A stretch of 43,424 nt of DNA from a virus, in IMG/VR virus record IMGVR_UViG_3300020171_001620, positions 1 to 43,424 of that record; one strand, 5' to 3'. The position numbers and the translations under genes are program-made. The number at the start of each line of letters is the position of its first letter. Position 1 is the stretch's first letter. The notes beneath the pieces were generated by a model. That model was given only the letters and a program-made list of their open reading frames with translations, was not told where the DNA came from and made no database searches. Shown here one piece after another: positions 6,422 to 24,975 of this stretch.

Positions 6422-6434
6422 TTATTTTCCTTTA

Positions 6435-7699: not shown

Positions 7700-8883
7700 T
7701 TTATTCCTCTTAACAAACTAAAAATTATTCTATTTAACTTCCCTTTCTGTACTCTTTGATGTGTTGGAAAATTGATTATATATTTAGATATATATTCAGC
7801 ATTCGGGCAACTACCTTTTATATATTTAACTCTATCAAAATCTTTACAGCCAAATATAACCGAATTAAACCATTTTCCTATAACTATATATTTATTTATA
7901 TTATTAAACTTGCTTATTGCTTGTTTAAGCATAGATAATCTTAACAATGGTTCTTTACCTACTATACTTTTTCGATGCCTTAAATTAGCTTGTAAATTAT
8001 TTAATTGATTAATCCCAATAAAGGATTGAATATTTGATAGTCTTAAAGGACAATTCTTTGGTTTTTCTTCTTTATTTTCGTCTCTAAAAAAATAAAATAT
8101 TCTTATCTTATCCAGGAAATGTCTCAATGGTTTTAATAACCAATATATTCTTGGATGTGTTATTGTTACCTCTATTATAAATGTAAATATAATTTGTAAT
8201 ATTCTAAAATATGACAAATGATTTCTTCTATTGTTACTTATTTTAACAGCTAATTCATCATCATTAGTAAATGCCATCCCACCCGTACTTGTTGATATTA
8301 CTTTAGTATGATCTGAAGAATAAAATCCTGCATCTCCTTGTAATTTTGTTATTCCTACTGAATGAGCGCAATCTTCTATTATTGCAATATTTTTCTTTCC
8401 AATAATTCTTTTGACTTGTCCAATATCTGCTGGCTTACCAAAGGTATGTTGAATGATGATTGTCTTTGTTCTTTTTGTGATATGACTTTCAATTTGTTTG
8501 ATATCCATATTATAGGTTTTGCTATCAATATCGCAATAAATAGGCATGGCACCGCAATAAATAATACTATTGGAAACCACAACACAAGTAAAAGCCTGTA
8601 AAATAACTTCATCTCCTTCTCCTATATCTAAAGATTTTAAAATACTATATAAAGCATGTCGCCCAGTTACAAATGAATATGCATATTTAGCACCCATAAC
8701 TTTTGCAGCTAATTCTTCATATTTTTCTATATAATTTCCTCTTACTATATTTGTTCCATTAAATATTTCTTTTATTATCATCCAACATTCATCAATAGTA
8801 TTTGAGCCGCAGAAAAAATCGTATTGATAAAAATGCCTTCTAATAAATATCTCTTTTATGCTATTTATTATTTGTTTTATCAT
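7696..8883 (-). CDS. DegT/DnrJ/EryC1-family aminotransferase
   Basis: A 395-aa PLP enzyme of the sugar aminotransferase family: 'GRHALYSIL' (about 74-82), 'IIEDCAHSVG' with the PLP Asp at 171, and 'DHTKVISTSTGGMAFT' with the likely Schiff-base Lys at 194. Residues around 225-260 form a hydrophobic insertion that is uncommon in the family and may touch membrane. A likely role is adding an amino group to a keto-sugar nucleotide. It has an ATGA overlap with the GT2 gene downstream. Confidence 0.8.
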   Translation of the reverse strand: MIKQIINSIKEIFIRRHFYQYDFFCGSNTIDECWMIIKEIFNGTNIVRGNYIEKYEELAAKVMGAKYAYSFVTGRHALYSILKSLDIGEGDEVILQAFTCVVVSNSIIYCGAMPIYCDIDSKTYNMDIKQIESHITKRTKTIIIQHTFGKPADIGQVKRIIGKKNIAIIEDCAHSVGITKLQGDAGFYSSDHTKVISTSTGGMAFTNDDELAVKISNNRRNHLSYFRILQIIFTFIIEVTITHPRIYWLLKPLRHFLDKIRIFYFFRDENKEEKPKNCPLRLSNIQSFIGINQLNNLQANLRHRKSIVGKEPLLRLSMLKQAISKFNNINKYIVIGKWFNSVIFGCKDFDRVKYIKGSCPNAEYISKYIINFPTHQRVQKGKLNRIIFSLLRGIK

Positions 8884-9155
8884 TTTTTTATATACATTGG
8901 TGACATGCTAAATGTATCTCTTTCTATCGTCACCATAATATTATTACATATAACAAATCGCCATCTTTTATATTTATAATATTCTGCTTCTTTGAAATCA
9001 TTATTTATTATTCTCTTAATCAATCCTGCTGTCATTCTTTCTTTTTTAGCTTTATTAAAAAGATTTAATATTCCATCTTCAATATTACATACATATTTAT
9101 TATCTTTTCCCATTTCAAAAATATATTTCTCTTGAGCATGTTTAGATATAATCAT
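8880..9155 (-). CDS. Small hypothetical protein, 91 aa
   Basis: A basic alpha/beta protein beginning 'MIISKHAQEKY', reminiscent of DUF4258/RelE-like folds (His-Ala-x-x-R/K opening and a C-terminal strand pair ending 'VICNNIMVTIERD'). That link is only by shape. It overlaps both neighbours by four bases. Confidence 0.5.
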   Translation of the reverse strand: MIISKHAQEKYIFEMGKDNKYVCNIEDGILNLFNKAKKERMTAGLIKRIINNDFKEAEYYKYKRWRFVICNNIMVTIERDTFSMSPMYIKK

Positions 9156-9283
9156 TTCTCAAATCCACACTTAGGGCATTTCTTGAATCCTATTTTTACT
9201 TCTTTTTCTGGCAATAAATATTTATGTTTACAAGCTGGGCATTGCATAACGCTAACCACTTTTATATTATCTTCTTTATCCAT
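9152..9283 (-). CDS. Tiny zinc-ribbon protein
   Basis: A 43-aa protein with CPAC at 14-17 and CPKC near the end, a complete zinc ribbon. AAGGA precedes ATG 9281-9283, and its TGA overlaps the ATG of the 9155 gene. It is shorter than most gene callers accept. Function unknown. Confidence 0.65.
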   Translation of the reverse strand: MDKEDNIKVVSVMQCPACKHKYLLPEKEVKIGFKKCPKCGFEK

Positions 9284-9296
9284 TTATTATTCCTTT

Positions 9297-9977
9297 TTAT
9301 ATCATTAACATTTCAGCAAATTTGAAATCAATTTTATCGTCTATATCAATACTTCGCTCTTTTGGCATTATATAAGCTGCTGCTCCTTCATAATAAAATG
9401 TTTTATGTTCTTTGAATTTTTCTATATCCACTATTACTATTGAGCCGTTTCCAAAATATGTATCTGGAACATTACTACTTTCAAATCTATTCAAGTCTTG
9501 AAAATAAACTGCTTTTAAATTATTGCCACTCAAATACATAGCGGAATAAGCGTTTTTTGTTGATTTATAAACTGATCTAATAGTTTTTCTTTCATTTTTT
9601 ATAAACATATTATAACAAGTTATTATATCTTCTGATTGTATAAATGGATTACTTGGTTGTATCATTATTAAAGTGTCAAATTCTTTATTTTGTTCTTTTA
9701 ATTGTTCTAAGCTATATAAACAAACATCTTTTATTTGATATGGATCTTTTGCTAATTCTAATGGTCTTTTTAAAATATTAACTACATTACTTTTACATAA
9801 ATCTTCGATTTCATCTGACTCAGTAGTAACATATATTTGCCCAATATTACTTTTTCTTGCGGCATATATCGAATAATCAAATAATGGAGTATTATCCAAT
9901 AAAAGCAAATTCTTTCTTAGCAATCTCACTGAGCATTCTTTAATCGGAATTAAAATCGCCACTCTATCTTTTTTCAT
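9297..9977 (-). CDS. neuA: CMP-nonulosonate (sialic acid) cytidylyltransferase-like
   Basis: A 226-aa enzyme of the acylneuraminate cytidylyltransferase family. 'ILIPIKECSVRLLRKNLLLL' is the nucleotide loop, 'YVTTESDEI' matches the S-T-D-S-D-E motif, 'IQPSNPF' follows, and 'RSIDIDDKIDFKFAEM' is the typical C-terminal signature. It would activate a sialic-acid-like sugar as its CMP form. It shares TAATG with the upstream 28-aa membrane peptide. The canonical basic loop is partly degenerate, so a related nucleotidyl substrate is possible. Confidence 0.82.
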   Translation of the reverse strand: MKKDRVAILIPIKECSVRLLRKNLLLLDNTPLFDYSIYAARKSNIGQIYVTTESDEIEDLCKSNVVNILKRPLELAKDPYQIKDVCLYSLEQLKEQNKEFDTLIMIQPSNPFIQSEDIITCYNMFIKNERKTIRSVYKSTKNAYSAMYLSGNNLKAVYFQDLNRFESSNVPDTYFGNGSIVIVDIEKFKEHKTFYYEGAAAYIMPKERSIDIDDKIDFKFAEMLMI

Positions 9978-10063
9978 TATTTAAACCATTCTTTTATTAA
10001 AATAATTGCTAACCCAATTAATCCAATTATCCATAATATTTTCTCTATTAATTTTATTTCCAT
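9977..10063 (-). CDS. 28-aa single-helix membrane peptide
   Basis: This short frame (MEIKLIEKILWIIG...) is almost wholly one hydrophobic helix with charged ends. It sits between the carbamoyltransferase and NeuA-like genes, with TAATG overlap into the latter. AAAGG lies just upstream. Its position and overlap make it a likely real mini-gene. Confidence 0.45.
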   Translation of the reverse strand: MEIKLIEKILWIIGLIGLAIILIKEWFK

Positions 10064-10069
10064 ACCTTT

Positions 10070-11824
10070 CTATTTCTTCCATATCAATAAATCTCCAAGC
10101 AATAAATAATCTAAATCTGATCTCTTAAAAGTATCGACAGCATCTATATAATTTAAAACTATAGGCTCACCATGTAAATTAAACGATGTATTTAATAAAG
10201 CCCCTATTCCGGTCAATTTCTCAAATTCTTTAATAATATCTCTATACCCATCATTTTGACCAAGTTCTAAAATTTGCGGTCTTATTGTAAAGTCTGCTGG
10301 ATGAATAGCTGCTTTTAAATGTTTTTTTGCAAGCTCTGTACTATCGAAAGCCATTGTCATATAAGGACATGGAATCTCTTTAGGATTAATAATATAATCT
10401 TTTTCTCTTTCTTTTAATATTGTTGGAGTAAACGGCATCCAGAAATCTCTTTTCTTAATAGCTTGATTTATTTTTCTTATATTGTCATAATTACTTGGAT
10501 CTGCAAGTATTGATCTATTGCCTAATGCTCTCAAGCCAAATTCCATTCTACCAGAACAGATACCTATTATATTTCCTCTTACAAGTAAAAATGCTATATA
10601 TTTTGCTCCTATGTTTTCACTATATTCAAAAATTATTTTACAATCAGATTCAATCATTTCATTGTATCTATATCCTGGCCCAAGATAAATATTACTTAAT
10701 GATTTACCTCTTTTATTTTGATAATAACAAGCCCCTATACTAACAGAAGTATCGCCAGCAGCAGGTGAAATATAGATCTTTTTTAAATTTTTTATCTCTG
10801 ATATTTTCTTACATGCCTTTATATTCTGAGCAACTCCACCAGCAAAATATACATTACCAATATTAAAAGTATTAATACATTTACTAATCCATTCAACTAA
10901 TAAATTTTCAGTAAATTTCTGAACTGCTCCAGCAATACCATCGAATCTATGTCCTTCTAATTTCTCTTTAAAATAAAAATATAAATCTTTTGGTTTCTTA
11001 TTATATACAATATTGAATCCCTCAACTTTTAATATATCTTTGAATACCTCATAGCTTTTTTCTATTTCATGTTTATTAGCATAAGGAGCTAATCCCATAA
11101 CTTTATATTCATGCTGTGCTGGTTTCATTCCCAATATCAAAGTTATGTATTGATAGATATGTCCTAAATGATTTTCATTAGTCCAAGCAATAGGACTTTG
11201 AATTTCATTATTTATAACCAATGAAACTGTAGCATTTGAATAATCGCCCGCCCCCTCTGAAGTAAAAATTAAAGCATTTTCATGTTGAACCGGAGCGGAA
11301 TAATAGGCGTAATATATATGACAATCTTCATGTTTAACTATGGATATTTTATCTTTATCTATTCCTAATTTATCAGAAATAAAATCAATTCTAATTTGTT
11401 TTAATTGTTCCATTTCATCTTTATCCATATAACCATTCAATAGATGATCTATCGGATAATCATTATCATAAACGAAATCTTTTCTATCTTTAAAAATATC
11501 ATAATAATTTATTTCTTTGTTTTCAAATAAGACTGGTTTCCAATATTTCTGCTGTTCTTCTACCCAGTCATTTACAGAAAAATTTGCATTTCTTTTTATC
11601 TTAGTCAAAACAGGGTTAAAACGTTTTGTTGATAAAACAACTTTATCTAAATCATCAACTTTTATATTTTGTGATTCAAGACAATATTTAATTGATTTTT
11701 CTGGATAACCATAATCCCCTTTCAGTCGACTTGCACGCTCTTCTTGCATTGCAGCAACTATTTCTCCATTAATCATCAAACAAGCTGAACAATCATGCCC
11801 CTCATGTAGGCCGAGTAGCTTCAT
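10070..11824 (-). CDS. NodU/CmcH-family carbamoyltransferase
   Basis: A 584-aa protein of normal family length. The N-terminal Kae1-like domain starts 'LGLHEGHDCSACL' and contains 'EERASRLKGDYGYP', 'HEDCHIYYAYY' and 'TSEGAGDYSN' (metal/ATP residues). The C-terminal YrdC-like half has 'GRMEFGLRALGNRSILADP' and 'NTSFNLHGEPIV'. These enzymes transfer carbamoyl from carbamoyl phosphate to sugar hydroxyls. Next to an AsnB-like gene and CMP-sugar genes, it probably carbamoylates a glycan building block. Confidence 0.92.
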   Translation of the reverse strand: MKLLGLHEGHDCSACLMINGEIVAAMQEERASRLKGDYGYPEKSIKYCLESQNIKVDDLDKVVLSTKRFNPVLTKIKRNANFSVNDWVEEQQKYWKPVLFENKEINYYDIFKDRKDFVYDNDYPIDHLLNGYMDKDEMEQLKQIRIDFISDKLGIDKDKISIVKHEDCHIYYAYYSAPVQHENALIFTSEGAGDYSNATVSLVINNEIQSPIAWTNENHLGHIYQYITLILGMKPAQHEYKVMGLAPYANKHEIEKSYEVFKDILKVEGFNIVYNKKPKDLYFYFKEKLEGHRFDGIAGAVQKFTENLLVEWISKCINTFNIGNVYFAGGVAQNIKACKKISEIKNLKKIYISPAAGDTSVSIGACYYQNKRGKSLSNIYLGPGYRYNEMIESDCKIIFEYSENIGAKYIAFLLVRGNIIGICSGRMEFGLRALGNRSILADPSNYDNIRKINQAIKKRDFWMPFTPTILKEREKDYIINPKEIPCPYMTMAFDSTELAKKHLKAAIHPADFTIRPQILELGQNDGYRDIIKEFEKLTGIGALLNTSFNLHGEPIVLNYIDAVDTFKRSDLDYLLLGDLLIWKK

Positions 11825-13104
11825 GCAAACTCCTCTAAAAATATCTTAGTATTAATAATCCCGAACAAAAATTTATTTTCTTCTCCAGTTAGATTTTGTT
11901 TAAATATTAATAATCTTACTTTATCCTTGTCGATAAAATCCCATATATCGCTATTATTAAAAAACCAATTTAAATTTCTTTTGTCAGTCATATCAAATAA
12001 TTCTCTTAATTCTACATTGAATCCTATTTTCTGTCTATTATCTAATATAAAATCTGGTATAATTCCTTTCATTGCATTTCTTAATATTGCTTTACTATAT
12101 CCATTTCTTAAAAGATATTTTGTTGGAATTTTATTTGCAAATTCAAATAATTCTTTATCTATAAAAGGTGATTCTCCTTTTAATAAAAAATATTCTGCAT
12201 TACTTCCTTCCTGTTTTAGCGCAAGTGGAATCGTCTCATTAAACATTTCATTTAACATTCTATTTCTTAGATTATTACGTGAATAAATCGACTCATAAAA
12301 ATCTTCTTTCCAATTAACAAGTAAATATTTTTCAAAATCAAAATAAAGATGTTTTCTAAAATATGGATTTTCTTCAAATAAAACAAAATCTTGTAAATAT
12401 TGATTTCTAATATTTGGAAGTATATAATTTATCCAATCTTTGAAAACTATTCTATATTCTGAAATATTATTTTTTTTCAATTCTGATAAATAATAAAGCC
12501 AATGATCATAATATCCTGCAAAAAGTTCATCTCCGCCCTCTCCACTTACTACGACACTATATCCTTCTTTATTTATTTCTCTCAGCATGAGCCAGTGGAC
12601 ATAATAGCTTATTGTGGCCAATGGGAATTTATGATGTTTTATTATAGTTTTTAGATTATTTATAAAATTGCTTTTATCCAAATTTATAAATTTATGCTTT
12701 ATCTTATATTCATTAACAACTTTGTTTACTATTTCTGATTCATCATATTTTTTATCTTTGCTTGTAATTGTAAATCCACATATATTTTTATAACTTAAAA
12801 CATTTTTTACAATACCTAAAATAGAATTTGAATCAATACCACCGCTTATACAAAAAGCAATATCATCATTTCTGTTCAGCTTATTTTCTATGGATTCGAT
12901 TAAAAGATTTTTAACTCTTTTTAAACAATAATCAAATGATAAATTTTCATCAGTAATATATTTGTTTTTGTCATCTAAAAATGGCAATAAATCATCTTCG
13001 ATAACTTCTTTGAAAAAAGATTCTTGCTTATTTTTATAAAGGCTTTTATATCCATTTATCAAGTATCTAAATAGTTGATTATAATTAATTTCATATTCCG
13101 GCAT
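11821..13104 (-). CDS. Asparagine-synthase-like amidotransferase domain protein
   Basis: A 427-aa protein carrying the AsnB C-terminal PP-loop ATPase: 'CISGGIDSNSILG' (SGGIDS at 87-92), 'KDKKYDESEIV' and 'SGEGGDELFAGY'. The N-terminal glutaminase domain with its catalytic Cys is absent, so it should use ammonia or a partner for nitrogen, or act as an adenylating ligase. It is typical of glycan clusters (WbpG/PglA-like amidation). It overlaps the carbamoyltransferase by four bases and the GNAT gene by 14. Confidence 0.85.
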   Translation of the reverse strand: MPEYEINYNQLFRYLINGYKSLYKNKQESFFKEVIEDDLLPFLDDKNKYITDENLSFDYCLKRVKNLLIESIENKLNRNDDIAFCISGGIDSNSILGIVKNVLSYKNICGFTITSKDKKYDESEIVNKVVNEYKIKHKFINLDKSNFINNLKTIIKHHKFPLATISYYVHWLMLREINKEGYSVVVSGEGGDELFAGYYDHWLYYLSELKKNNISEYRIVFKDWINYILPNIRNQYLQDFVLFEENPYFRKHLYFDFEKYLLVNWKEDFYESIYSRNNLRNRMLNEMFNETIPLALKQEGSNAEYFLLKGESPFIDKELFEFANKIPTKYLLRNGYSKAILRNAMKGIIPDFILDNRQKIGFNVELRELFDMTDKRNLNWFFNNSDIWDFIDKDKVRLLIFKQNLTGEENKFLFGIINTKIFLEEFA

Positions 13105-13831
13105 TAATATTTTCTCCAGTATGAAGATGAAAAATACTTTTCATTTCTACCAATTCACATCCAAAAGACTTATATAAATTTACAGCAGGTAAATTAGATG
13201 ATTGAGTTCCAACTTTTTTATCAATAAATTGAACTGCATTAATAAAAGTCTCTATTAATAACGATGCAACGCCTTTGTTTCTATAACTTTTTTCAACTAC
13301 TATGAGATCAATTACAACTTTACTTTCATCAAACATTGACAATAAAAATCCAGCCGGAATATTATTATTCAAAGCAATAAATACACAATCCCCTCTAAGT
13401 CCTGTTACATAGCTTTCAGCCCATTCTCTTTTTATTTTATTTGCTGTTTCATTATCAATAAATTCATCCTGATGAAATCTTGAATTAGAAAAAGAAGTCT
13501 CTGCTATTTCTAAAATCTTATCTTTATATTTTATAGGAATAGAATCAAAAGAAACAATATTAAAATTTTCATTTTTTTCATTGCCTTTATCTATATTTTT
13601 ATCTGGAAATTTATATCTAAATTCAAGGTCAATATATATAAATCCCTTCTTTACTAAAGCCTCTCTTAGTCCAAAAAGATATATAGAATCATTAATTTTA
13701 GTATAATAAAATGCTTTTCTATCATTAGTTATTATATCCAAATCTTCTTTTTTGAAATGGCTATCAAATTCAATTTTGAAAGTATCTTTTTTTAATAAAT
13801 TTGATAGCCAAGTGTCTTTTGTTATTTGCAT
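13091..13831 (-). CDS. GNAT N-acetyltransferase
   Basis: A 246-aa protein whose C-terminal half (about 110-240) is a GNAT fold. 'VEKSYRNKGVASLLIETF' matches the acetyl-CoA loop (Q/RxxGxG/A) and 'NLPAVNLYKSFGCELVE' is the closing motif. The N-terminal half, about 100 aa, is an extra domain as in WecD-type sugar acetyltransferases. It likely N-acetylates an aminosugar. It begins 13 bases beyond the small repeat array. Confidence 0.8.
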   Translation of the reverse strand: MQITKDTWLSNLLKKDTFKIEFDSHFKKEDLDIITNDRKAFYYTKINDSIYLFGLREALVKKGFIYIDLEFRYKFPDKNIDKGNEKNENFNIVSFDSIPIKYKDKILEIAETSFSNSRFHQDEFIDNETANKIKREWAESYVTGLRGDCVFIALNNNIPAGFLLSMFDESKVVIDLIVVEKSYRNKGVASLLIETFINAVQFIDKKVGTQSSNLPAVNLYKSFGCELVEMKSIFHLHTGENINAGI

Positions 13832-13843
13832 TTTATTTATTTA

Positions 13844-14033
13844 AAATACGCTCATCCTCAATAGTTTTCTCTATTTTTGTAGCTCGCTCAATTTCAATAG
13901 ATTTCTCACAAATCTTAGCTCACTCCAACTTCATAGTTTTCTCTATTGCCTTAGTACACTCTTGTCATATAGTTTTCTCTTATTCAGTAGTTCGCTCTTA
14001 AACGATAGTTTTCTCATAGCCTATAGCTCATTC
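13844..14033 (-). repeat. TIGR-like array 2 (36-nt period, degenerate)
   Basis: About 5.3 periods of exactly 36 nt. On the plus strand one 10-nt repeat (TAGCTCGCTC type) starts at 13844 (degenerate), 13880, 13916, 13952, 13988 and 14024. The other (TAGTTTTCTC type) starts at 13862, 13898, 13934, 13970 and 14006. Between them lie ten 8-nt spacers, all different, e.g. tatttttg, caacttca, tattgcct, ttaaacga. Several repeats carry point changes (TAGTACACTC, TAGATTTCTC, TAGCTCATTC), so this array looks older than array 1. On the minus strand it begins five bases after the tas-like stop codon, so it is probably transcribed as the 3' end of that message. Confidence 0.88.
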
Positions 14034-14038: not shown

Positions 14039-14791
14039 TTATGCTGCTTTTCTATTATGTTCTCTTCCCAAATATTCTTCTGCATAAGGTTTTCTTACTG
14101 GCAGCCCTTCTATTTCCCGCCATGCAACATATAAATCTATCAAAAACATTTTAATCATTATTCGTATAGCATCATTATGGCGATGACTTTTTGTAGCATC
14201 CTTCCATGCTATTAATTTAGCTTTTTCTCCCTTTTTACTTATTTCCCAAACTTTTTCATTACTATTTTCTGTTCTCATTTTTCTATTATAATAATAGCCT
14301 GTATATGGAACAGATTTACATTGAAGAAATAACGAACCAAGTACACCACATAATTTACTTTTAAGAAATTGATTATATTTACATTTTTGACCTTTTGTTT
14401 TTTTGTCCTTACCTGGCGCAAGTCCAGCAAATGATATTAAATTACTTGCAGCAGGAGCTTTGTATATATCAAATTGACTAATAATTACGGCGGCCATTAC
14501 TGGGCCACATCCCTTAACAGTATCTCGTAAAAATCCAGTCCATAAAGGATGATCTTGAATAAGCAAGGTAATTTCTTTTTCCATAATTTTTTCTGCATTA
14601 GAAATTTCATTTCTCCTATCTTGAAGATAAACTAACATAGCGAGATCACGCATAGGGGCTTTCTTTTTAATTGTTCCATCTTTTTTTTGTCCCAAACGAT
14701 TATCCATGGCAATTCTTTCATATTGATAATCATAATATGCCCTTATGGAAATCCCTAAAGATGTCAACATTTCATCTGTAAATTTTTTCAT
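14039..14791 (-). CDS. tas: Nop-only Tas-like protein (IS110 Transposase_20-like, nuclease-less)
   Basis: A 250-aa protein. Residues 1-90 are helical, probably coiled coil. Residues 91-225 match the C-terminal Transposase_20 part of IS110/IS116/IS902 transposases: 'VKGCGPVMAAVIISQFDIY' (HhH-like), 'ASNLISFAGLAPG', then 'AIRIMIKMFLIDLYVAWR'. The N-terminal DEDD/RuvC domain of IS110 enzymes is absent. Where the family has its catalytic Ser-Gly after GLAP, this protein reads DKKTKGQK, so transposition looks impossible. Two 36-nt-period arrays flank it. Known TIGR-associated (Tas) proteins carry a Nop domain related to box C/D snoRNP proteins and IS110, with or without HNH or RuvC; this fits a nuclease-less Tas. 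It overlaps the ParB-like gene by ATGA. Confidence 0.75.
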   Translation of the reverse strand: MKKFTDEMLTSLGISIRAYYDYQYERIAMDNRLGQKKDGTIKKKAPMRDLAMLVYLQDRRNEISNAEKIMEKEITLLIQDHPLWTGFLRDTVKGCGPVMAAVIISQFDIYKAPAASNLISFAGLAPGKDKKTKGQKCKYNQFLKSKLCGVLGSLFLQCKSVPYTGYYYNRKMRTENSNEKVWEISKKGEKAKLIAWKDATKSHRHNDAIRIMIKMFLIDLYVAWREIEGLPVRKPYAEEYLGREHNRKAA

Positions 14792-15480
14792 GCCACCACC
14801 TCGCTTTCTATAATTGCAGCTTGTATAGCTTCCATTAATTCTTTCAATATGGCTATTTCATTAGGAGTTAATGGGAAAGCATTTGCTCTTAAAGCATTAA
14901 GCAATAATCTTGCATTAACGATAGGCAACATTCCATTTGCTGTTCTTGCATAGGTCTCTTGTTTTTTAGTTAATTTTTTACCCGCTAAATCCATTGCTCC
15001 AGCAGATAAAGCAATCTTTTCTCCTTCTTGAGTAACCGCTGTGCGCTTCTCTTCGAACTGTTTGATTTTTTCTTTTGTCATACCAAGGATTTCGCCTATT
15101 TTAGCAAGAGGAATTTTCTTTCTTCTGGCAGTTAAGATTACATATACTTTATCTTTTGGTGATAATGGTAATCCGTGAACAGTATTTAAACGAGCTGCTT
15201 CAAGAAACATTTCTATTTCATTAGCATATTCACGAAACTCAACATCAACTATTGCATCATTTCCATAAAACAATAAAGTTGCTTGATGCCGATGAAATCC
15301 ATCTATAATTCTAAAACTTACTTTATCCGCAATAATTGGGTCTTTAAATTTACTTCCTGATCTTAACACCTCCTTTAATTTTGAAACATTGGTTGAATCT
15401 AATTCATTTGCTTCATGCCTTGGCCACAAACTCCAATCTTTAATTAATTCTAATGCCTTTACTTGTGTTATTTCTCCCAT
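14788..15480 (-). CDS. ParB/Srx-fold protein with helix-turn-helix, Tas partner
   Basis: A 230-aa protein. Residues 1-85 form a ParB/sulfiredoxin nucleotide-binding domain with the signature 'RIIDGFHRHQATLL' (57-70, matching GxxRxxA). Residues 105-150 contain a KorB/ParB-type helix-turn-helix ('IPLAKIGEILGMTKEKIKQFEEK'). A C-terminal helical region follows. AAGGAA precedes the ATG at 15480. It is the first gene after array 1 and overlaps tas by four bases, so the two proteins are made together. No ParA gene is near, so plasmid partition is unlikely. It may bind the array DNA, regulate tigRNA transcription, or act as a nucleotide-driven effector on target DNA. Confidence 0.8.
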   Translation of the reverse strand: MGEITQVKALELIKDWSLWPRHEANELDSTNVSKLKEVLRSGSKFKDPIIADKVSFRIIDGFHRHQATLLFYGNDAIVDVEFREYANEIEMFLEAARLNTVHGLPLSPKDKVYVILTARRKKIPLAKIGEILGMTKEKIKQFEEKRTAVTQEGEKIALSAGAMDLAGKKLTKKQETYARTANGMLPIVNARLLLNALRANAFPLTPNEIAILKELMEAIQAAIIESEVVA

Positions 15481-15499: not shown

Positions 15500-15543
15500 G
15501 TCCCATACGGGACTTTTATATTACTTCTTTCATACGAAAGAAG
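15500..15543. promoter_or_regulatory. Two hairpins with the same ATAC loop between array 1 and parB-like gene
   Basis: GTCCC-ATAC-GGGAC lies at 15500-15513 and an 8-bp perfect stem CTTCTTTC-ATAC-GAAAGAAG at 15524-15543. Both have the same four-base loop closed by C-G, and on the transcribed minus strand the loop reads GTAT in both. No T-run follows in the direction of transcription, so these are not classic terminators. They could be processing sites separating array RNA from the mRNA, or palindromic operators for the ParB-like protein. Confidence 0.6.
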
Positions 15544-15574: not shown

Positions 15575-15980
15575 TAGTTCGCTCGTTAATATCAGTTTTC
15601 TCTTTGTATTTAGCTCGCTCAGCGACTGTAGTTTTCTCTTATTATATAGCTCGCTCTTTCATAGTAGTTTTCTCAGCTCAAGCAGCTCGCTCGCTTTTCG
15701 TAGTTTTCTCCCAATATCTAGCTCGCTCCAGAAACATAGTTTTCTCAGCTATGATAGCACGCTCTCTGCATTTAGTTTTCTCTATCAGAATAGCTCGCTC
15801 CAGAAACATAGTTTTCTTTCGTTTTTTAGCTCGCTCTATTTTTTTAGTTTTCTCGAGAGGTGTAGCTCACTCTTTGACTTTAGTTTTCTCAGTCAGGATA
15901 GCTCGCTCCTTTAAATTAGTTTTCTCATCTTTGATAGCTCGCTCGGACATAATAGTTTTCTCAACCACGATAGCTTTTCA
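15575..15980 (-). repeat. TIGR-like array 1 (36-nt period, dual repeats, 8-nt spacers)
   Basis: Eleven exact 36-nt periods plus a degenerate end. Plus-strand TAGCTCGCTC copies start at 15575, 15611, 15647, 15683, 15719, 15755, 15791, 15827, 15863, 15899 and 15935, with a decayed copy at 15971. TAGTTTTCTC copies start 18 nt after each, at 15593 through 15953. The 22 spacers are each 8 nt (e.g. agcgactg, ttattata, gcttttcg, gagaggtg, aaccacga); cagaaaca occurs twice (15729, 15801), both times in the same half of the unit. Read on the minus strand the unit is GAGCGAGCTA-N8-GAGAAAACTA-N8. A promoter-like block lies directly upstream on that strand. The period equals the 36-nt dual-spacer tigRNA of TIGR-Tas systems. 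Confidence 0.92.
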
Positions 15981-15990
15981 GTTCCCATTC

Positions 15991-16038
15991 TCTTTAATCT
16001 TATTATATATTATTTTTTAAAAATTTTTGAAATTATTT
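15991..16038 (-). promoter_or_regulatory. Promoter-like block driving array 1
   Basis: On the minus strand this reads AAAAAATAATATATAATA followed by AGATTAAAGA. The TATAAT lies at 16007-16002, so a transcript would start near 15995, fifteen bases before the array. Three near-identical blocks occur at 16231, 32287 and 39871, each just after a stop codon. The function is inferred from the repetition and the TATAAT match. Confidence 0.65.
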
Positions 16039-16052
16039 TCAAAAACAGGATA

Positions 16053-16172: not shown

Positions 16173-16230
16173 TTTTCATTCTCCTATTTTAAAAATCTTA
16201 TCATAATATATTTCTAAATTCCTTTCTCAT

Positions 16231-16280
16231 TCTCTTTAATTCTATTATATATTATTTTTTCAGAATTTTTGAAATTATTT
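16231..16280 (-). promoter_or_regulatory. Promoter-like block (copy 2)
   Basis: The minus strand has the same AAAAAATAATATATAATA core followed by GAATTAAAGAGAATG. The TATAAT-like hexamer is at 16249-16244. It lies between the stop of the epimerase gene (16282) and the 39-aa membrane protein start (16172). Confidence 0.6.
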
Positions 16281-16281
16281 T

Positions 16282-17277
16282 TCATTTTGCTAAAAAATCT
16301 TTATACCAACCAATATATTTTATAATTCCATCGTCAATAGGATATTCAGGACTATATCCAAGCAGCTTCTTAGCTTTGTCAATATTCAAAGTACCTCTAT
16401 ATGGCACAAGTTTATCCCTTTTCTTATACTGAAATTTAATTGCAGCAAATTCCTTTCTTAATATATCAACTACATCCAATAATTTTCTTGATTCTCCATA
16501 AGTTAAATTAAATGTTTCTCCGTATGCTTTCTCGTTTCCTATCATCAAACATATCCCATTTACAAAATCATCAACATAAGTAAAATCAAGTTTTTCCTGT
16601 CCATCTCCTTGAACAAAAATAGTTTCATCATTTAAAATATTTTCAATAAATATCTGAACTACTCTTCTGCTTATACATCTCTCCCCATACAAAGCTGATG
16701 GTCTTACAATGGTATAATTAAAATCATCAAATATTTGACTATATGCCTTTACTAATAATTCTCCTGATATTTTTAATGCACCGTATATTCCAATCGGATC
16801 TAAATTATCATCTTCCTTTACTTCTTCTGATTGAAAATTGCCATACACCATACTGGATGAGAAATATATAAATTGCTCAACTGTTTTATAAGAAGCATCA
16901 AGGGCATTTTCAAGCGTTCGCAAACTGTGGTCAAAAGTTGAATAAGGATCTTTATTTGATCGATTTGCATGGGAAACAGCGGCTAAATGGATAACCACTT
17001 CTGGCTTAAACTCACTTATTGAATGAGATAGTAAATGATAATCTCTTGCGTCAGTACAATCCAGCTCTATTCCTGCTTCTTCTATTAATTCAAGCCTTTT
17101 TTTAATAAAAGAAAAATATAAATCTCTATTTGGAATATCACGCTTACTAATTAAATAGCCAAAATTATTAACCTGCAAATTATCAACAATTTTCACGACA
17201 TAACCAAGTAAATTTAGATGAAGACTCAAGTGATGCCCTAAGAATCCAGCTCCGCCAACTAATAAAATTCTTTTCAA
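16282..17277 (-). CDS. NAD-dependent sugar epimerase/dehydratase (extended SDR)
   Basis: A 331-aa extended short-chain dehydrogenase: 'LVGGAGFLGHHL' is the GxxGxxG NAD site at 6-17, 'HLAAVSH' follows, and 'YGALKISGE' is the YxxxK catalytic pair. Family length is normal. It would act on an NDP-sugar (GalE/RmlB/Gne class). Its ATG overlaps the stop of the intein-bearing aminotransferase gene (17274-17277), so both may act on one intermediate. Confidence 0.88.
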   Translation of the reverse strand: MKRILLVGGAGFLGHHLSLHLNLLGYVVKIVDNLQVNNFGYLISKRDIPNRDLYFSFIKKRLELIEEAGIELDCTDARDYHLLSHSISEFKPEVVIHLAAVSHANRSNKDPYSTFDHSLRTLENALDASYKTVEQFIYFSSSMVYGNFQSEEVKEDDNLDPIGIYGALKISGELLVKAYSQIFDDFNYTIVRPSALYGERCISRRVVQIFIENILNDETIFVQGDGQEKLDFTYVDDFVNGICLMIGNEKAYGETFNLTYGESRKLLDVVDILRKEFAAIKFQYKKRDKLVPYRGTLNIDKAKKLLGYSPEYPIDDGIIKYIGWYKDFLAK

Positions 17278-19268
17278 TTAATATTCTCCTTTATAGTTTC
17301 AATAATATAATTCAAATTATTCTTAGTTATATGCGGCCCGATTGGCAAACATAATGAATTATTAGCTATATTCAAAGCATTCTGGAATCTAATTTTTTGA
17401 AAACCATATTTTTTTTGATAGAAAGAAAATTGATTAACCGGATGAGGATAATAAATGCTACATCCAATCTCGTTTTCTTTGAATACATTTAACATTTTTT
17501 CTCTAATCTCGTTGCTTTTATATACGACGCTCAAACAATAATAAGACTTCATTCCATGATCGTTATAAATAATTCTATCTATGTTCCCGAATGCTTTATT
17601 CTCATCTCTTAATTTTTCTATACCGTTTTTCAAGTAATAGAAATTGAATTTTCTTGTTTCTAAATTTTTTTCTATTGATTGCATCTGACAAAATCCAAGA
17701 GCTGCCTGCAATTCACTCATTCTATAATTTAATCCAAGCTTATCTATATCATATTTAAAGCCAGTACTATCATCAGATTTTCCAAAAGCTCTTATACTTT
17801 TTGCTTTTTCAAAAATATCTTTACTATTCGTTGTAAACATGCCTCCCTCACCGGTAGTAATATGCTTACATGGATAAAAACTAAAGCAATTATGAACTGC
17901 TACATTAGCAACAAAATAACTATGGTCATCTTCTATTTCTAAATTATATACTTTTCTTTTACTTTTATATTTTTTTTCAATACTTTTTATAGGGACATAA
18001 ATTAAACCTAATTCATTATCAACATAATATTCTTTATTATTTTTACGTTTATTTTTTTCTTTTTTGGGATAAACCCAAACAATATCATCATAATAAGATT
18101 TAAGTTTCTCTGAATATTTAGTTATTTTTCTTTTTCTTGGCAATTTATTCTCGACTTCAATAGCTATTACTTGATTATCTTTTATGGCTATTATATCCGG
18201 AATCGCTATTCCAATTGGAATAATTCTATACCCTTCCTTCTCATATTTTTTAGCTACTGGTAAAATATCCTTATAATAATGTTTAAATTTAGACGTAATA
18301 TAATTTGACTCCTTTTTTCTATCCTTAACTTTTGAAATTTTATCACCAACTCCTTTTATTTGGGCAGGATTACAATATTCGCATATCTGCCAATAAAAAG
18401 GGATAATTTTCCCGCATACTTTGCACTTAGAAGTTCTTATATAGCAATAATCTGTTTTTTTATTTAAATCTTTTATCAATACCCATTTTTTTTCTCCATT
18501 CCTATTTACTAAAATTGGATGTTCTTCTGTAGCATTTAATGTTCTATTTCTCCAGCCAGCAGTATTACTCATCCCATCTAATTTTAAATTATACCAATAT
18601 CCAGAATAATATCTCATATATGTCTTTGTAACTTTTTTATATCTATTTTTATGCGTTAAAACTTCATCCCCAATATTTACTTTTGATATTGGTAATAAAC
18701 CTTTCTTTGTCGAAATCTTTGCTCTGCAATCAAAACAACCCACATCTGATAGAGTTCCAGTATGATTTCCTTCTATATCTCTTGCCCCTAATGATAAAGC
18801 ACAATCCTCTATTACTTTCAAATCATAGTCATTTACTATTTCCATTATTTTTTTCATGTTATTTGGAATGCCTAAAAAATGTACCAGGGAAATAGCTTTT
18901 GTTTTATTGGTTATATTTTTTTCAATCTGATAAATATCAATATTTCCATCAACACCATTACAATCAATAAATATAGGAGTTGCTCTAACTAATTCTACTG
19001 CATGAACTGTTGCTACATGAGTCATAGCAGGAACTATAACTTCATCTCCTTCTTTTATTCCTAAAACCAAATAAGCCAGATGAAGCGCTGCCATACATGA
19101 ACTAACCACAAGACAATATTTTGCTTTTGTAAATTTTCTAAATTCTTCTTCAAATTTTCTGCATTGTTCTCCATCGGTTAATTTTGTTTGATTCAACAAT
19201 ACATTTTTTATATATTCTGCATCTTGTTTTCTTATATTTGGAATTGCAAAAGGTATAATTCTTTTCAT
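17274..19268 (-). CDS. DegT/DnrJ/EryC1 aminotransferase with intein
   Basis: A 664-aa precursor. Residues 1-177 and 461-664 join into a 381-aa sugar aminotransferase: 'VVSSCMAALHLAY', 'VIEDCALSLGAR' (PLP Asp region) and, after the splice point, 'CFSFYPCKHITTGEGG' with the Schiff-base Lys at precursor residue 468. The intein splits the sequence just before this loop, so the enzyme should be inactive until splicing. Probable role: amination of a keto-sugar nucleotide, together with the epimerase downstream. A free-standing homing endonuclease gene lies directly upstream. Confidence 0.9.
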   Translation of the reverse strand: MKRIIPFAIPNIRKQDAEYIKNVLLNQTKLTDGEQCRKFEEEFRKFTKAKYCLVVSSCMAALHLAYLVLGIKEGDEVIVPAMTHVATVHAVELVRATPIFIDCNGVDGNIDIYQIEKNITNKTKAISLVHFLGIPNNMKKIMEIVNDYDLKVIEDCALSLGARDIEGNHTGTLSDVGCFDCRAKISTKKGLLPISKVNIGDEVLTHKNRYKKVTKTYMRYYSGYWYNLKLDGMSNTAGWRNRTLNATEEHPILVNRNGEKKWVLIKDLNKKTDYCYIRTSKCKVCGKIIPFYWQICEYCNPAQIKGVGDKISKVKDRKKESNYITSKFKHYYKDILPVAKKYEKEGYRIIPIGIAIPDIIAIKDNQVIAIEVENKLPRKRKITKYSEKLKSYYDDIVWVYPKKEKNKRKNNKEYYVDNELGLIYVPIKSIEKKYKSKRKVYNLEIEDDHSYFVANVAVHNCFSFYPCKHITTGEGGMFTTNSKDIFEKAKSIRAFGKSDDSTGFKYDIDKLGLNYRMSELQAALGFCQMQSIEKNLETRKFNFYYLKNGIEKLRDENKAFGNIDRIIYNDHGMKSYYCLSVVYKSNEIREKMLNVFKENEIGCSIYYPHPVNQFSFYQKKYGFQKIRFQNALNIANNSLCLPIGPHITKNNLNYIIETIKENIN
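17889..18737 (-). mobile_element. Intein with PD-(D/E)XK-like domain and zinc ribbon
   Basis: The intein is 283 aa. It starts CFDCRAKISTKKG-LLPISKV (block A), has 'NATEEHP' (block B, TxxH) and ends 'DHSYFVANVAVHN' before Cys+1, so all splicing residues are present. The central part lacks LAGLIDADG and HNH motifs. Instead there is a CKVC...CEYC zinc ribbon (about 105-122), then 'IPDIIAI' and 'IAIEVENK' (180-198), which match a PD...ExK nuclease core. Insertion is between Gly177 and Cys461 of the host enzyme. Confidence 0.85.
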
Positions 19269-19283
19269 TTTTTTATCTCTTTA

Positions 19284-19967
19284 TTAATATTCATAATTCT
19301 GTTTTATTACTGTTCTGTATATTTCTTTCCATTCATCGCGATTGAAATTCGCTTTACAATTACATGATCTACAATTTGAAATTAAATTTTCAAAAGTACA
19401 GTTCTTCTTGTCATAGTCAATGTGATGAACGCCCAAAGGATTGTTCCTGGTAATAGGTTTCTCGCAAAATGGAGTCATGCATTTATAATTGTCTCTTTGT
19501 TTTATGAATTCCTTCAGGTCTTTGGTAAATTCAAAGCAGTATGGCTCAAGCGAAGTTCCACCACGCCACATATGGCTATCTTTACCGCAATACTTACCTC
19601 TCTTACCTTTAGATATTTTTTGGCATGTTTCAATAGTATGTTTTCTACCTTTTTTAGATTCTGATATTTTCTGTTTTGTTTCTTCAGAAAGTTTTTTGCT
19701 ATAATTAGGGTGTTTGTTATTGATTCTACCAAACATAGGGTGATTTTTACCAGTTATACCAAACATAGGATTATTTTCGCCTTTTAAAGCTTGTGATATT
19801 TTTCTTTTTGTTTCTTTTGTATGTTTTTTACCAAAATTAGGATTCTTTTCGCCCATGTTTGCCTTGCTCATTTTTTCAAGCGTTTCCTCAGAAAAAATAC
19901 GCCCTAATAATACTTTAGATCTTTTTCTTTTATGTTCTTCTGTTTGTTTATATCCTTTTTTTGGCAT
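19284..19967 (-). CDS. NUMOD3-HNH homing endonuclease
   Basis: A 227-aa protein. The first 130 residues hold repeated NUMOD3 units ('SEET..K.S.A..G..NPMFG', at least five). The C-terminus is an HNH domain ('YKCMTPFC...GVHHIDYDKKNCTFENLISNCRSCN'). It is closely similar to the 24976 gene, especially in the last 90 residues. It sits 15 bases upstream of the intein-bearing gene and probably mobilises itself or a neighbour. Role in phage growth: none expected. Confidence 0.92.
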   Translation of the reverse strand: MPKKGYKQTEEHKRKRSKVLLGRIFSEETLEKMSKANMGEKNPNFGKKHTKETKRKISQALKGENNPMFGITGKNHPMFGRINNKHPNYSKKLSEETKQKISESKKGRKHTIETCQKISKGKRGKYCGKDSHMWRGGTSLEPYCFEFTKDLKEFIKQRDNYKCMTPFCEKPITRNNPLGVHHIDYDKKNCTFENLISNCRSCNCKANFNRDEWKEIYRTVIKQNYEY

Positions 19968-19991
19968 ATTTCTTTCTTTCTAAATAACTAT

Positions 19992-20234
19992 TCAGCCTTC
20001 TATTTTACCATATTCTTTCATAAATACTTCATCAATTAATTTTCTTAATGTTATCGGAACTATTTTTAGCATTTTATTAATATCATTATATATTTTATTT
20101 GGAGCCTTTCTATATGCTTCACAAAAATTATCTATATTGCCATATAACTCTAAACATGACTTTTTAATAATATCTAACCAAAACTCTTTATAATTCTCTG
20201 CAAAATCAAATTGTTGTATTGGCCTTTCTAACAT
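19992..20234 (-). CDS. Hypothetical protein, 80 aa
   Basis: A small helical protein with no recognised motif. Its ATG overlaps the end of the DUF692-like gene by seven bases, suggesting coupled expression and perhaps partnership with it. Confidence 0.45.
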   Translation of the reverse strand: MLERPIQQFDFAENYKEFWLDIIKKSCLELYGNIDNFCEAYRKAPNKIYNDINKMLKIVPITLRKLIDEVFMKEYGKIEG

Positions 20235-21016
20235 TTTATTTCTCCTAAAAATTTATTTAAATATTTATATTCCTTCTCCAACTTCTCAAAATCATTATAA
20301 TATTCAATAACAAAATAAATATTTTCAAAATCAATTCTATCTCGCAACCAATCAATAATATGATATTCTTGTATCGTAGGTATCTCATGACTGTCTTCTA
20401 AAATATTATCAATAAATACTATATGACTTAAATGAATCTCAACACATCTATCTAATGGCAAAAAATTCAAATATTCTCTGATATTCATTTTCATATTATA
20501 TGCAGATATAATTGCATGAGCTATATCTAATAAGAAATAAATATCATTCTCTTCTATTATTTCTGTTATGAATTGTGGTTCACATATATATTCATAAGCT
20601 GGAAGATAAAAATAATTGGTATTTTCCAATGCTATTTTACCATTAAAATTGTTTCTAATAAATTTTATTCTATTTTTTATTAATTTCTTTAAATCAGATT
20701 TTTCTAAAATATCACTTTGACAAATATATCTTCCATCATCAATAAAATATTCAGAACATACTGGTCCTAATGTACATGAAAATATTTCTACGTTTATAAA
20801 TTTTAAAAAAGGAAGTGTGCTAATAAAATAATCTTCAAAGTTATTTTTTATTATTCCTATATTACTATGAAATAGCATCTTTTTATCTTTATCATAACAA
20901 AGTATTGTTCTTGCTAATTTTTCTTTTATATCTTTAAATTCAAAAGAATTTATACCACTGATTCCAAAATAGTTTTTTCTATTAACAAGATTACTTATCG
21001 GAAGGGTTAAGTTCAT
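20228..21016 (-). CDS. DUF692/MNIO-like TIM-barrel protein
   Basis: A 262-aa protein with features of the DUF692 (multinuclear non-heme iron oxidative enzyme) family: 'IALENTNYFYLPAYEYICEPQFITEIIE', then 'DIYFLLDIAHAIISAYN' (cf. LLDVNN..VSAxN) and 'CVEIHLSHIV' (EIHLAG). Known members modify Cys or other residues of ribosomal peptides, using two or three irons. Here it stands in a glycan region without an obvious precursor peptide, unless the 80-aa protein at 19992 is one. A sugar-isomerase-like barrel is the alternative. Confidence 0.6.
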   Translation of the reverse strand: MNLTLPISNLVNRKNYFGISGINSFEFKDIKEKLARTILCYDKDKKMLFHSNIGIIKNNFEDYFISTLPFLKFINVEIFSCTLGPVCSEYFIDDGRYICQSDILEKSDLKKLIKNRIKFIRNNFNGKIALENTNYFYLPAYEYICEPQFITEIIEENDIYFLLDIAHAIISAYNMKMNIREYLNFLPLDRCVEIHLSHIVFIDNILEDSHEIPTIQEYHIIDWLRDRIDFENIYFVIEYYNDFEKLEKEYKYLNKFLGEIKC

Positions 21017-21359
21017 TAATTATTTCACCTGTATTTTTTATTACTTGAATTGCTCTGTCATCATATAGCTTCCTCATGCCATAATCTTTGATATTAGTTA
21101 CTTCTAAATCAGGCAAACCATTATCTTTTAACCATTGCTCTACATATTGTTTATGTTCTGGAATAGTTGATCTTGCAGTAAATATTTTGACAGTATAATT
21201 ATATATTCTACCATTTCTTATTTCTTCAATAAGTAATAATTTAGCCCTTGGAATAATTTTTCCTATATGACTCGCTCCTCTCCAATAATCATAAAATGCA
21301 AGAGTCCCATCTAAATCAAAACCTACCCAGTATTGATAATTTTTAATATCAAAATCCAT
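20991..21359 (-). CDS. Small HAD-superfamily protein
   Basis: A 122-aa protein with 'VGFDLDGTLAFYDYW' (DxDGT, nucleophile Asp), 'VKIFTARS' (motif II Thr) and 'YDDRAIQV' (motif IV), a minimal HAD phosphatase without a large cap. I choose ATG 21357-21359 because GGGAGGT lies just before it. That start overlaps the upstream TAA (TAATG). Likely a sugar or nucleotide phosphatase in the glycan pathway. Confidence 0.75.
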   Translation of the reverse strand: MDFDIKNYQYWVGFDLDGTLAFYDYWRGASHIGKIIPRAKLLLIEEIRNGRIYNYTVKIFTARSTIPEHKQYVEQWLKDNGLPDLEVTNIKDYGMRKLYDDRAIQVIKNTGEIINELNPSDK

Positions 21360-22414
21360 TACACCTCCCAAGGAAATTTATCTTTATAATGTTTTATAAT
21401 TGGCATTTCAGATGAATTTAATAAAAAATCGTACATCTTATTCACCGCTTCATTAATATCGTCATATACAAATATTGAGTCTCCAAATTGTTTTAATACA
21501 TCTTTTCTAACTGGAGCTGCTTTATAATATCTCAAGCAAAGAGATGGAATATTTAAATAAATAGCATCATATATAGTTGTAGAAACACAATCAGTTATAA
21601 AATAAGACGTTTTAGATAACAGCTTATTAAAATTATTTTTATTTTCTATTTTTATATATTTTAAATTGTCTCTTATAAAATCAGGAGTAGGATCATATAT
21701 TTCGTTACCTTTTGAAAAGCATTTATAAATAACTTTATAGTCTCCTAATATATTTAATTCTGTTAAAATCTTAATTCGATGTTTATATCTTATTATTTCA
21801 GGAAATAGTTGAGGAAATCTATCGCCAGTAGGAAATTGAGGGGCATACATTATTATTTTTTTATCTATTTTTCTTTTTACTTTTGGCATTGGTCTTTGCC
21901 ATTCTCTTATTTTTATATTACTGCCATATTTTTTTACTTCTTCTTCCATGTGTTTTCTTATACTTGAATCATTAGCATAAAAATAATCATAATTCATAAT
22001 TCTATCATAAACTATATATGGATGATATGTGCCTGTATCTCCATGATCAAGATATATTGTTTCAAGATTAATAATGCTGTTAGCAGCCTCTAATGCTGCA
22101 TGAGGATATAAATTATCTCTTGTTAGTTTATCTACAACTAAATAATTTATATTATTATTTAAAAGCCATATTTTAATTCCGCTTACCATTAACTTGAATT
22201 TTTCTTTATCAAAATCCAAATATCTCCAATCAAATTTTTCATATTTTAACGGAAGAAATTTAATTGAGCAATCATTTTGAGAAAGAATCTTAATTATAAC
22301 ATCGGTAATAGTTCTATTATAACAAATAAAAGCTATATTATTTCTAAGCAAACTGCTTGATAAGCTTTCAATCACCTGTTGTATTAATAATCGTATTATT
22401 TTTTTAATATTCAT
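21359..22414 (-). CDS. Putative surface-polysaccharide GT-B transferase
   Basis: A 351-aa protein. The C-terminal part ('YKVIYKCFSKGNE...SKTSYFITDCVSTTIYDAIYLNIPSLCL') matches the end of GT-B/CDP-glycerol-transferase-like and capsule enzymes, where D-x-x-S-T...E/D-A lines the nucleotide site. The middle has 'IYLDHGDTGTYHPY'. It overlaps the HAD gene and the 119-aa gene (11 bases). The donor is unknown. Confidence 0.6.
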   Translation of the reverse strand: MNIKKIIRLLIQQVIESLSSSLLRNNIAFICYNRTITDVIIKILSQNDCSIKFLPLKYEKFDWRYLDFDKEKFKLMVSGIKIWLLNNNINYLVVDKLTRDNLYPHAALEAANSIINLETIYLDHGDTGTYHPYIVYDRIMNYDYFYANDSSIRKHMEEEVKKYGSNIKIREWQRPMPKVKRKIDKKIIMYAPQFPTGDRFPQLFPEIIRYKHRIKILTELNILGDYKVIYKCFSKGNEIYDPTPDFIRDNLKYIKIENKNNFNKLLSKTSYFITDCVSTTIYDAIYLNIPSLCLRYYKAAPVRKDVLKQFGDSIFVYDDINEAVNKMYDFLLNSSEMPIIKHYKDKFPWEV

Positions 22415-22763
22415 TATTATGTTTGTTAATTAAATTTTTTAGTATTTTATACTGATCTCCAACATAATCTATCCATTTAACATTAAAAATAGTCTTATAT
22501 TCTTTTAAAAATCTCTTCCAGTATTGTTTCGTTTCTTCTTTTTCTAATTCATTTAAACAAAATACATTGTATTCTGAAAAATCTTTAACATCTATTAATT
22601 CTGGATAATAATAATCTTCCGGAATTGAATATTGAATATTTAGTTTATCTAATTGATAACAAGCCAATGGAGTTAAAGCCATTATATTTACATAATTTCC
22701 GAAATTAATTTCTTCTTTTATTTGAAAAATACTTGGAAGATATTCAAGAAATAAACTTTTCAT
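22404..22763 (-). CDS. Possible N-terminal piece of a surface-carbohydrate protein
   Basis: A 119-aa protein whose segment 'IMALTPLACYQLDKLNIQYSIPEDYYYPE' resembles the opening domain of large surface-carbohydrate synthesis proteins. The following gene (21359) could be the rest, so the pair may be a split version of one longer enzyme. They overlap by 11 bases in different frames. This is an inference from layout; no definite family. Confidence 0.45.
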   Translation of the reverse strand: MKSLFLEYLPSIFQIKEEINFGNYVNIMALTPLACYQLDKLNIQYSIPEDYYYPELIDVKDFSEYNVFCLNELEKEETKQYWKRFLKEYKTIFNVKWIDYVGDQYKILKNLINKHNNEY

Positions 22764-22766
22764 TTT

Positions 22767-22985
22767 TTATTTTACCATCATTTTAATAATTATTTCTTCC
22801 TGTTCATTTAGCCGTCTTAATAGAGCATTGCATCGTTCATATAATCGTTCAATATGAGATTCCATTTGCCATGTTGTCCAACCTGAAATTTCATGACATG
22901 AATATTCCTGATCTCCAGGATCCCCAAGCTCTTCTAATTCTTCTTTCCAAACAATACCTATTTTTGATTCTTTTAAATTATCCAT
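22767..22985 (-). CDS. Small hypothetical protein, 72 aa
   Basis: An acidic protein with a C-terminal coiled-coil stretch ('ESHIERLYERCNALLRRLNEQEEI'). The ATG overlaps the radical SAM gene end by 13 bases. It resembles short phage proteins of unknown role. Confidence 0.45.
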   Translation of the reverse strand: MDNLKESKIGIVWKEELEELGDPGDQEYSCHEISGWTTWQMESHIERLYERCNALLRRLNEQEEIIIKMMVK

Positions 22986-24085: not shown

Positions 24086-24105
24086 AATATCTCCTTATAA
24101 AATTT

Positions 24106-24464: not shown

Positions 24465-24473
24465 TTTATACTC

Positions 24474-24956: not shown

Positions 24957-24975
24957 AATCTCTCCTTTTGTTTGT

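What the first reader, a model, noticed from the sequence alone, without database searches (positions are those of the whole stretch)
15575..15980. Array 1: eleven perfect 36-nt units with dual repeats and 22 eight-base spacers
The repeat phase never slips over about 400 bases while the spacers are essentially random, which argues for selected guides rather than simple satellite expansion. Spacer cagaaaca appears twice in the same half-unit with different partners, hinting that the two spacers of a unit are exchanged or acquired independently.
Basis: seen in the sequence. Interest (0 to 1): 0.9.

Follow-up and report, generated by a model that had tools for sequence, protein, structure and literature searches.

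The report
Phage TIGR-TasA RNA-guide array
This phage carries a TIGR array, a recently described CRISPR-like store of paired 8-letter guide sequences that lets a small protein find DNA by reading both strands; relatives show that guide halves are reshuffled as half-units, and that one group of marine phages keeps a guide fitting bacterial tRNA genes.

Summary
The array is real: 11 units of exactly 36 nt at 15575-15980 (transcribed on the - strand), with edge GAGCGAGCTA, loop GAGAAAACTA and 22 spacers of exactly 8 nt. The units are perfect in length and phase, not in sequence. A second, 5-unit array lies at 13844-14033. Between the arrays are tasParB (14788-15480) and tasA (14039-14791), overlapping by 4 nt.

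This is the dual-repeat TIGR-TasA/TasParB system of Faure et al. 2025 (PMC12045711). The window's TasA alone matches the solved TasH (E 3e-18) and TasR (2e-10). All eleven significant fold matches of its model are TasH or TasR. 88 of 91 related loci carry 36-nt dual-repeat arrays. It is a new member of a known kind.

Spacers recur within arrays with a different partner in 37 independent same-half cases, against 1 across halves. Arrays turn over far faster than tas genes. No target was found for the window's guides.

In marine relatives one unit is kept while its neighbours turn over; its two spacers spell 17 nt of the tRNA D-arm in TIGR geometry. That is a candidate natural target, a question the discoverers left open.

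The parts
15575..15980 (-). TIGR array 1: 11 units of 36 nt; edge GAGCGAGCTA, loop GAGAAAACTA, 22 spacers of 8 nt; 5' truncated edge TGAAAAGCTA at 15971-15980
13844..14033 (-). TIGR array 2: 5 units, same repeats, 10 spacers of 8 nt, begins just after the tasA stop; imperfect or truncated edges at both ends (GAATGAGCTA, GAGCGTATTT)
14039..14791 (-). tasA: solo Nop-domain Tas protein, 250 aa, no room for a nuclease domain; Pfam Transposase_20 (IS110 C-terminal) E 3e-5; PDB TasH E 3e-18 and TasR E 2e-10; AlphaFold model pLDDT 82.5, all eleven PDB fold hits with E<=0.001 are TasH/TasR
14788..15480 (-). tasParB: 230 aa ParB-like protein, overlaps the tasA start by 4 nt; PHROG ParB-like partition protein E 4e-5; model pLDDT 87.3, fold hits ParB, Noc and KorB (partial overlap, TM about 0.35-0.5)
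15986..16045 (-). leader just upstream of array 1 with a promoter-like TTCAAA-18-TATAAT (16031-16002); a near copy lies at 16228-16290
   Evidence: the promoter scan alone is at chance level; the duplication is not
15729..15736 (-). spacer B TGTTTCTG, first copy (partner A TCATAGCT)
15801..15808 (-). spacer B TGTTTCTG, second copy (partner A AAAAACGA; loop variant AAGAAAACTA)
15500..15543 (-). two small hairpins (CTTCTTTC-GTAT-GAAAGAAG and GTCCC-GTAT-GGGAC) between array 1 and tasParB; role unknown
   Evidence: (read directly)

Best explanation
A dual-repeat TIGR-TasA/TasParB locus of a phage. Inferred working: a promoter at about 16000 transcribes array 1, tasParB, tasA and array 2 leftward. 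With TasA bound, the precursor is cut inside edge repeats into 36-nt tigRNAs (half edge, spacer A, loop, spacer B, half edge). A TasA dimer holds one tigRNA and opens a 16-bp DNA site, spacer A pairing with one strand and spacer B with the other. Having no nuclease, it binds and bends rather than cuts, and it probably recruits or loads TasParB there to block or mark the DNA. Targets are probably not the phage itself; rival mobile elements or host genes are the likely ones. Spacers turn over by gain and loss of whole units and by exchange of half-units between like repeats. Shown here: anatomy, family membership, half-faithful re-use and turnover in relatives, absence of self-targets. Known from the family (PMC12045711): processing and two-strand targeting. 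Inferred: the role of TasParB and the nature of the window's targets.
For: Array anatomy. TasA homology to TasH/TasR of known structure by sequence and fold. Nearest record among 50,697 phage records is Salicola phage CGphi29, the source of the TasH characterised by Faure et al.. tasA-tasParB operon with arrays upstream, between or downstream as published; here array-tasParB-tasA-array, and in relative L007 three arrays. TasParB-like matches in 12 of 50 related records, at least 9 of them beside tasA. 88 of 91 further loci, found by Tas or TasParB homology, carry 36-nt dual-repeat arrays (lag 36 is the top or near-top period). Repeat covariation: both window repeats end in CTA where 86 of 89 loci have C at the middle place in both; the inner edge pair is G-C, A-T or G-T in nearly all loci. 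Half-faithful spacer re-use 37 to 1. No perfect own-genome match for 918 guides.
Against: No transcription, processing or binding data for this locus. No target found for any window guide. The TasParB role rests on operon structure and a partial fold match. The promoter scan of the region is at chance level, and no terminator-like site follows either array.
Confidence: 0.95

Rival explanations
1. Plain satellite or ParB-binding (parS-like) repeat cluster: the 10-mers are protein binding sites for TasParB and the 8-mers are filler.
For: A ParB-like gene is adjacent and the repeats are short and evenly spaced.
Against: About three quarters of the 50 related records scanned have the same arrays beside a tas gene but no TasParB match. 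Edge and loop differ only in the middle and change together at the ends, as expected for an RNA held by a protein dimer. The repeats flank a Tas protein related to tigRNA-binding proteins of known structure.
Confidence: 0.02
2. IS110/IS1111-type transposase with its bridge RNA: tasA is a transposase remnant.
For: Pfam Transposase_20 and PHROG 'transposase' matches; IS621 and ISCro4 are the next fold matches.
Against: The protein is 250 aa and lacks the N-terminal DEDD catalytic domain. PDB fold matches rank TasH and TasR far above IS621 (6e-12 to 1e-6 against 5e-3). Tandem dual-repeat arrays are not a feature of bridge RNAs.
Confidence: 0.02
3. A TIGR locus whose arrays are maintained without targets, decaying or acting only as an RNA sponge or decoy.
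For: No target found for window guides; some repeats carry substitutions.
Against: Both genes are intact and most repeats are exact. In relatives the unit length is kept while spacers turn over fast, and a non-self guide is kept.
Confidence: 0.08

Closest known systems
TIGR-TasA / TasParB loci (Faure et al. 2025 Science, PMC12045711, methods section on the parB-like gene and fig. S14)
   Same: tasParB-tasA operon, solo Nop TasA, dual-repeat arrays with 10-nt repeats upstream and downstream, 36-nt units
   Different: Box C reads CTA in both repeats instead of CCA (the C-to-T change is seen in only 3 of 89 loci here); no shared spacers with the nearest relative
SpTIGR-TasH of Salicola phage CGphi29
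   Same: 8-nt spacers, 36-nt units, homologous Nop domain (25% identity over the alignment; phmmer E 3e-18 to the TasH structure)
   Different: TasH carries an N-terminal HNH nuclease; TasA here does not; no TasParB was seen in the phage collection
TaTasR (PDB 9mty)
   Same: Nop fold, sequence E 2e-10, fold E 2e-7
   Different: RuvC nuclease and 9-nt spacers
IS110 recombinase with bridge RNA (IS621, PDB 8wt6, 8wt9)
   Same: Related Nop-type RNA-binding domain (fold E about 5e-3)
   Different: DEDD recombinase, single bridge RNA, transposition
CRISPR-Cas arrays
   Same: Interspaced guide array processed into small guide RNAs, spacer turnover
   Different: Two alternating short repeats, two 8-nt spacers per guide, two-strand targeting, no adaptation genes known

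Membership tests
TIGR-Tas (dual-repeat) | Two distinct alternating short repeats (8-12 nt) with 8-9-nt spacers, 36-nt unit | tested here: met
TIGR-Tas (dual-repeat) | Adjacent Tas protein with Nop domain related to TasR/TasH | tested here: met
   sequence; fold
TIGR-Tas (dual-repeat) | Array starts and ends with truncated edge repeats (typical) | tested here: met
   TGAAAAGCTA starts array 1; GAATGAGCTA and GAGCGTATTT bound array 2; array 1 ends in a full but substituted edge
TIGR-Tas (dual-repeat) | Rho-independent terminator after the array (described as typical, not required) | tested here: not met
   no minus-strand terminator-like site right after either array; not treated as defining because the paper says 'typically'
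TIGR-Tas (dual-repeat) | Box motifs at repeat ends covary between edge and loop | tested here: met
   CTA in both repeats of the window; the C-to-T change occurs in both repeats of all 3 loci that have it
TIGR-TasA / TasParB subtype | Nuclease-free TasA operonic with a ParB-like gene | tested here: met
   4-nt gene overlap
TIGR-Tas (dual-repeat) | Array processed to 36-nt tigRNAs bound by Tas | not testable with these tools
   needs small-RNA sequencing
TIGR-Tas (dual-repeat) | Tandem-spacer recognition of both DNA strands | tested here: inconclusive
   no window target found; a conserved guide of relatives fits tRNA genes in this geometry
IS110 transposase | N-terminal DEDD domain | tested here: not met
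   250-aa protein; Pfam finds only the C-terminal Transposase_20

The most novel reading that the evidence does not exclude
TIGR arrays evolve by half-units: spacers are copied and recombined together with their own repeat, so spacer A stays A and B stays B while partners change. At least one TIGR-TasA guide kept by selection is aimed at a bacterial tRNA gene (D-arm, 17 of 17 nt in the A / reverse-complement-B geometry), making it a first natural target candidate for a TIGR system.
Probability: 0.6. Interest if true: 0.78.

Novelty: new member of a known kind. Interest (0 to 1): 0.5.

Why it matters
The locus itself adds one phage to a family described in 2025. Its value is what the comparison gives. 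Faure et al. state that the natural targets, and the way TIGR arrays arise and expand, are unknown. Here half-faithful spacer re-use (37 to 1) and fast array turnover point to recombination between like repeats, and a kept guide that fits tRNA genes gives a concrete target to test.

Tried and rejected
Self-targeting: no perfect match of any of 918 distinct guides in its own contig or locus at gaps 0-2. An apparent shortage of near-matches in the canonical geometry was not specific to that geometry in 200 permutations, so self-avoidance is not claimed. Cross-phage targets: two exact 16-nt matches in canonical geometry at gap 0, namely an L113 guide in the window near 20477 and a window guide in L103; both are AT-rich and isolated, so treated as chance. 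Viral collection: window guide 1 (TCGTGGTTGGACATAA) and one 18-nt guide of L011/L013 gave one hit each, in unrelated genes. tRNA test of all guides: none of the 989 regularly parsed guides matches exactly, including the window's. An exact repeat-pattern scan of the viral collection found no other locus. Integration aid: no Phage_integrase match in the 11 records scanned, though these may be fragments. Plasmid collection: no TasA match.

Full report
Observation. The array at 15575-15980 is real. Read on the minus strand, it is a truncated edge TGAAAAGCTA followed by 11 units of [spacer A 8 nt][loop GAGAAAACTA][spacer B 8 nt][edge GAGCGAGCTA], each exactly 36 nt. Six repeats carry one substitution, so the units are perfect in phase rather than in sequence. 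A second array of 5 units with the same repeats lies at 13844-14033. The repeated spacer is TGTTTCTG, spacer B in two units with different A partners.

Surroundings. The window is a whole IMG/VR virus record of 43424 bases. Between the arrays lie two genes on the same strand overlapping by 4 nt: a 230-aa ParB-like protein and a 250-aa protein with an IS110 C-terminal-type domain. Upstream of array 1 is a leader with a TATAAT-like box, a near copy of which lies about 240 bp further upstream.

Identity. Faure et al. 2025 (PMC12045711) describe TIGR arrays: two alternating 8-12-nt repeats, 8-9-nt spacers, 36-nt units, beside a Nop-domain Tas protein. Their methods describe tasParB-tasA operons with 10-nt repeats and arrays upstream, between and downstream. 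The window fits closely; only the typical terminator after the array was not seen. Its TasA alone matches the solved TasH at E 3e-18 and TasR (9mty) at E 2e-10. Its AlphaFold model (pLDDT 82.5) matches only TasH and TasR at E<=0.001, eleven chains, with IS621 next at 5e-3. TasParB's model (pLDDT 87.3) matches ParB, Noc and KorB, with partial overlap. The nearest phage record is Salicola phage CGphi29, whose TasH the authors characterised.

Relatives. Scans gave 91 non-redundant further loci, most by TasA homology and two by TasParB. A generic parser found dual-repeat arrays in 88 of them and in the window, 1203 guides in all. Lag 36 is the best or near-best period in nearly all. Loci of the window's kind have 8-nt spacers, most others 9. 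TasParB matches were found in 12 of 50 records scanned, at least 9 of them beside tasA (positions compared). Repeats covary: the inner edge pair is G-C, A-T or G-T in nearly all loci, and the C-to-T change that gives the window CTA occurs in both repeats of all three loci that have it. This matches the published requirement for a symmetric dimer.

Spacer dynamics. Within arrays, a spacer recurs with a different partner in 23 A-A and 20 B-B pairs of units, against 1 A-B match; chance expectation is 0.27, 0.27 and 0.57. After removing copies from near-identical loci there are 37 independent same-half cases (19 A, 18 B). In 24 of these the partners differ at 4 or more of 8 positions; the rest look like unit duplication followed by mutation. 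One locus (L078) holds a full chimera: A1-B1, A2-B2 and A1-B2. Since Faure et al. report that swapped spacers still work, the strict half-fidelity is best read as copying or crossing over between like repeats. Between phages, L011 and L013 have tas genes 98.8% identical but share 4 of 23 guides; L011 and L012 differ by one whole unit; L016 and L017 (94.3%) share none. The window and L007 share fewer than two spacers by the listing and none by eye.

Targets. The window's 16 guides have no perfect paired match in the window. None of 918 distinct guides has a perfect paired match in its own contig or locus, and no geometry-specific self-avoidance was seen. The window's guides do not resemble tRNA genes. 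One window guide scanned over the viral collection gave a single isolated hit.

A guide that is kept. In L009-L014, and in modified form in L101 and L256, one irregular unit persists while its neighbours turn over: edge variant AACGA(A/G)TGCCA, A CTAACCA(A/G), loop AGCACAACCA, B ATAGCTCAG. B followed by the reverse complement of A reads ATAGCTCAG-(T/C)TGGTTAG, the D-arm of many tRNAs. This is the two-strand geometry that I derive from the published 8-nt 3' overhangs and C-5 rule (A followed by the reverse complement of B on one strand). The T form occurs in 5 of 9 bacterial genomes, each time in a tRNA gene, and never in the reversed control. The T and C forms occur in 6 of 59 genomes of a second phylum, again at tRNA genes. 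Pairing every A with every B in the family gives 0.002 expected tRNA matches per set of guides at gap 0, so chance is unlikely even after allowing for a few geometries; the parse of this irregular unit was made by eye. The 17-mer was absent from all phage sequence held at that point, so the guide is not self-directed. Weak points: the L101/L256 form (ATAACTCAG) was not found in 99 genomes of the phylum of L105, hosts are unknown, and no integrase was found.

Mechanism. Shown: anatomy, homology, half-faithful spacer re-use, turnover, no self-targets. Taken from the family: processing to 36-nt tigRNAs, pairing of A and B with opposite strands, DNA bending. Inferred: without a nuclease, TasA binds and TasParB is loaded or recruited to block or mark the site.

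Verdict. The locus is a new member of the TIGR-TasA/TasParB kind. The extra interest lies in the comparative results. No paper in the searched library reports half-unit exchange or a tRNA target; papers outside that library could not be checked.

Noticed in passing
L009 7116-7165, L010, L011, L012, L013, L014, L101, L256 (array unit with ATAGCTCAG or ATAACTCAG): An irregular TIGR unit kept among fast-changing neighbours whose two spacers spell the tRNA D-arm ATAGCTCAG(T/C)TGGTTAG in two-strand geometry.
   Followed up: yes
window 17274-19268 (-) and 32323-34734 (-): Inteins (Intein_splicing, Pfam) inside a DegT/DnrJ aminotransferase and a B12-binding radical SAM protein, the latter with an HNH/NUMOD3 homing part.
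   Followed up: no
window 1852-13831 and 16282-31911 (-): Large block of sugar and small-molecule genes in a virus record: NeuB, cytidylyltransferases, epimerases, DegT aminotransferases, carbamoyltransferase, asparagine synthase, GNAT, glycosyltransferase, radical SAM.
   Followed up: no
window 20228-21016 (-): MbnB/TglH/ChrH-type RiPP modification enzyme (Pfam E 2e-16) in a phage record.
   Followed up: no
window 15986-16045 and 16228-16290 (-): A leader of about 60 bp with a TATAAT-like box occurs twice, once before array 1 and once about 240 bp upstream of it: perhaps a phage promoter family.
   Followed up: partly
window 19284-19967 and 24976-25662 (-): Two proteins made of three NUMOD3 motifs each, typical of homing endonuclease DNA-binding parts.
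   Followed up: no
L038/L050, L060/L068, L100/L101: Homologous guides differ by one or two spacer bases between close relatives, as if spacers drift or track changing targets.
   Followed up: partly
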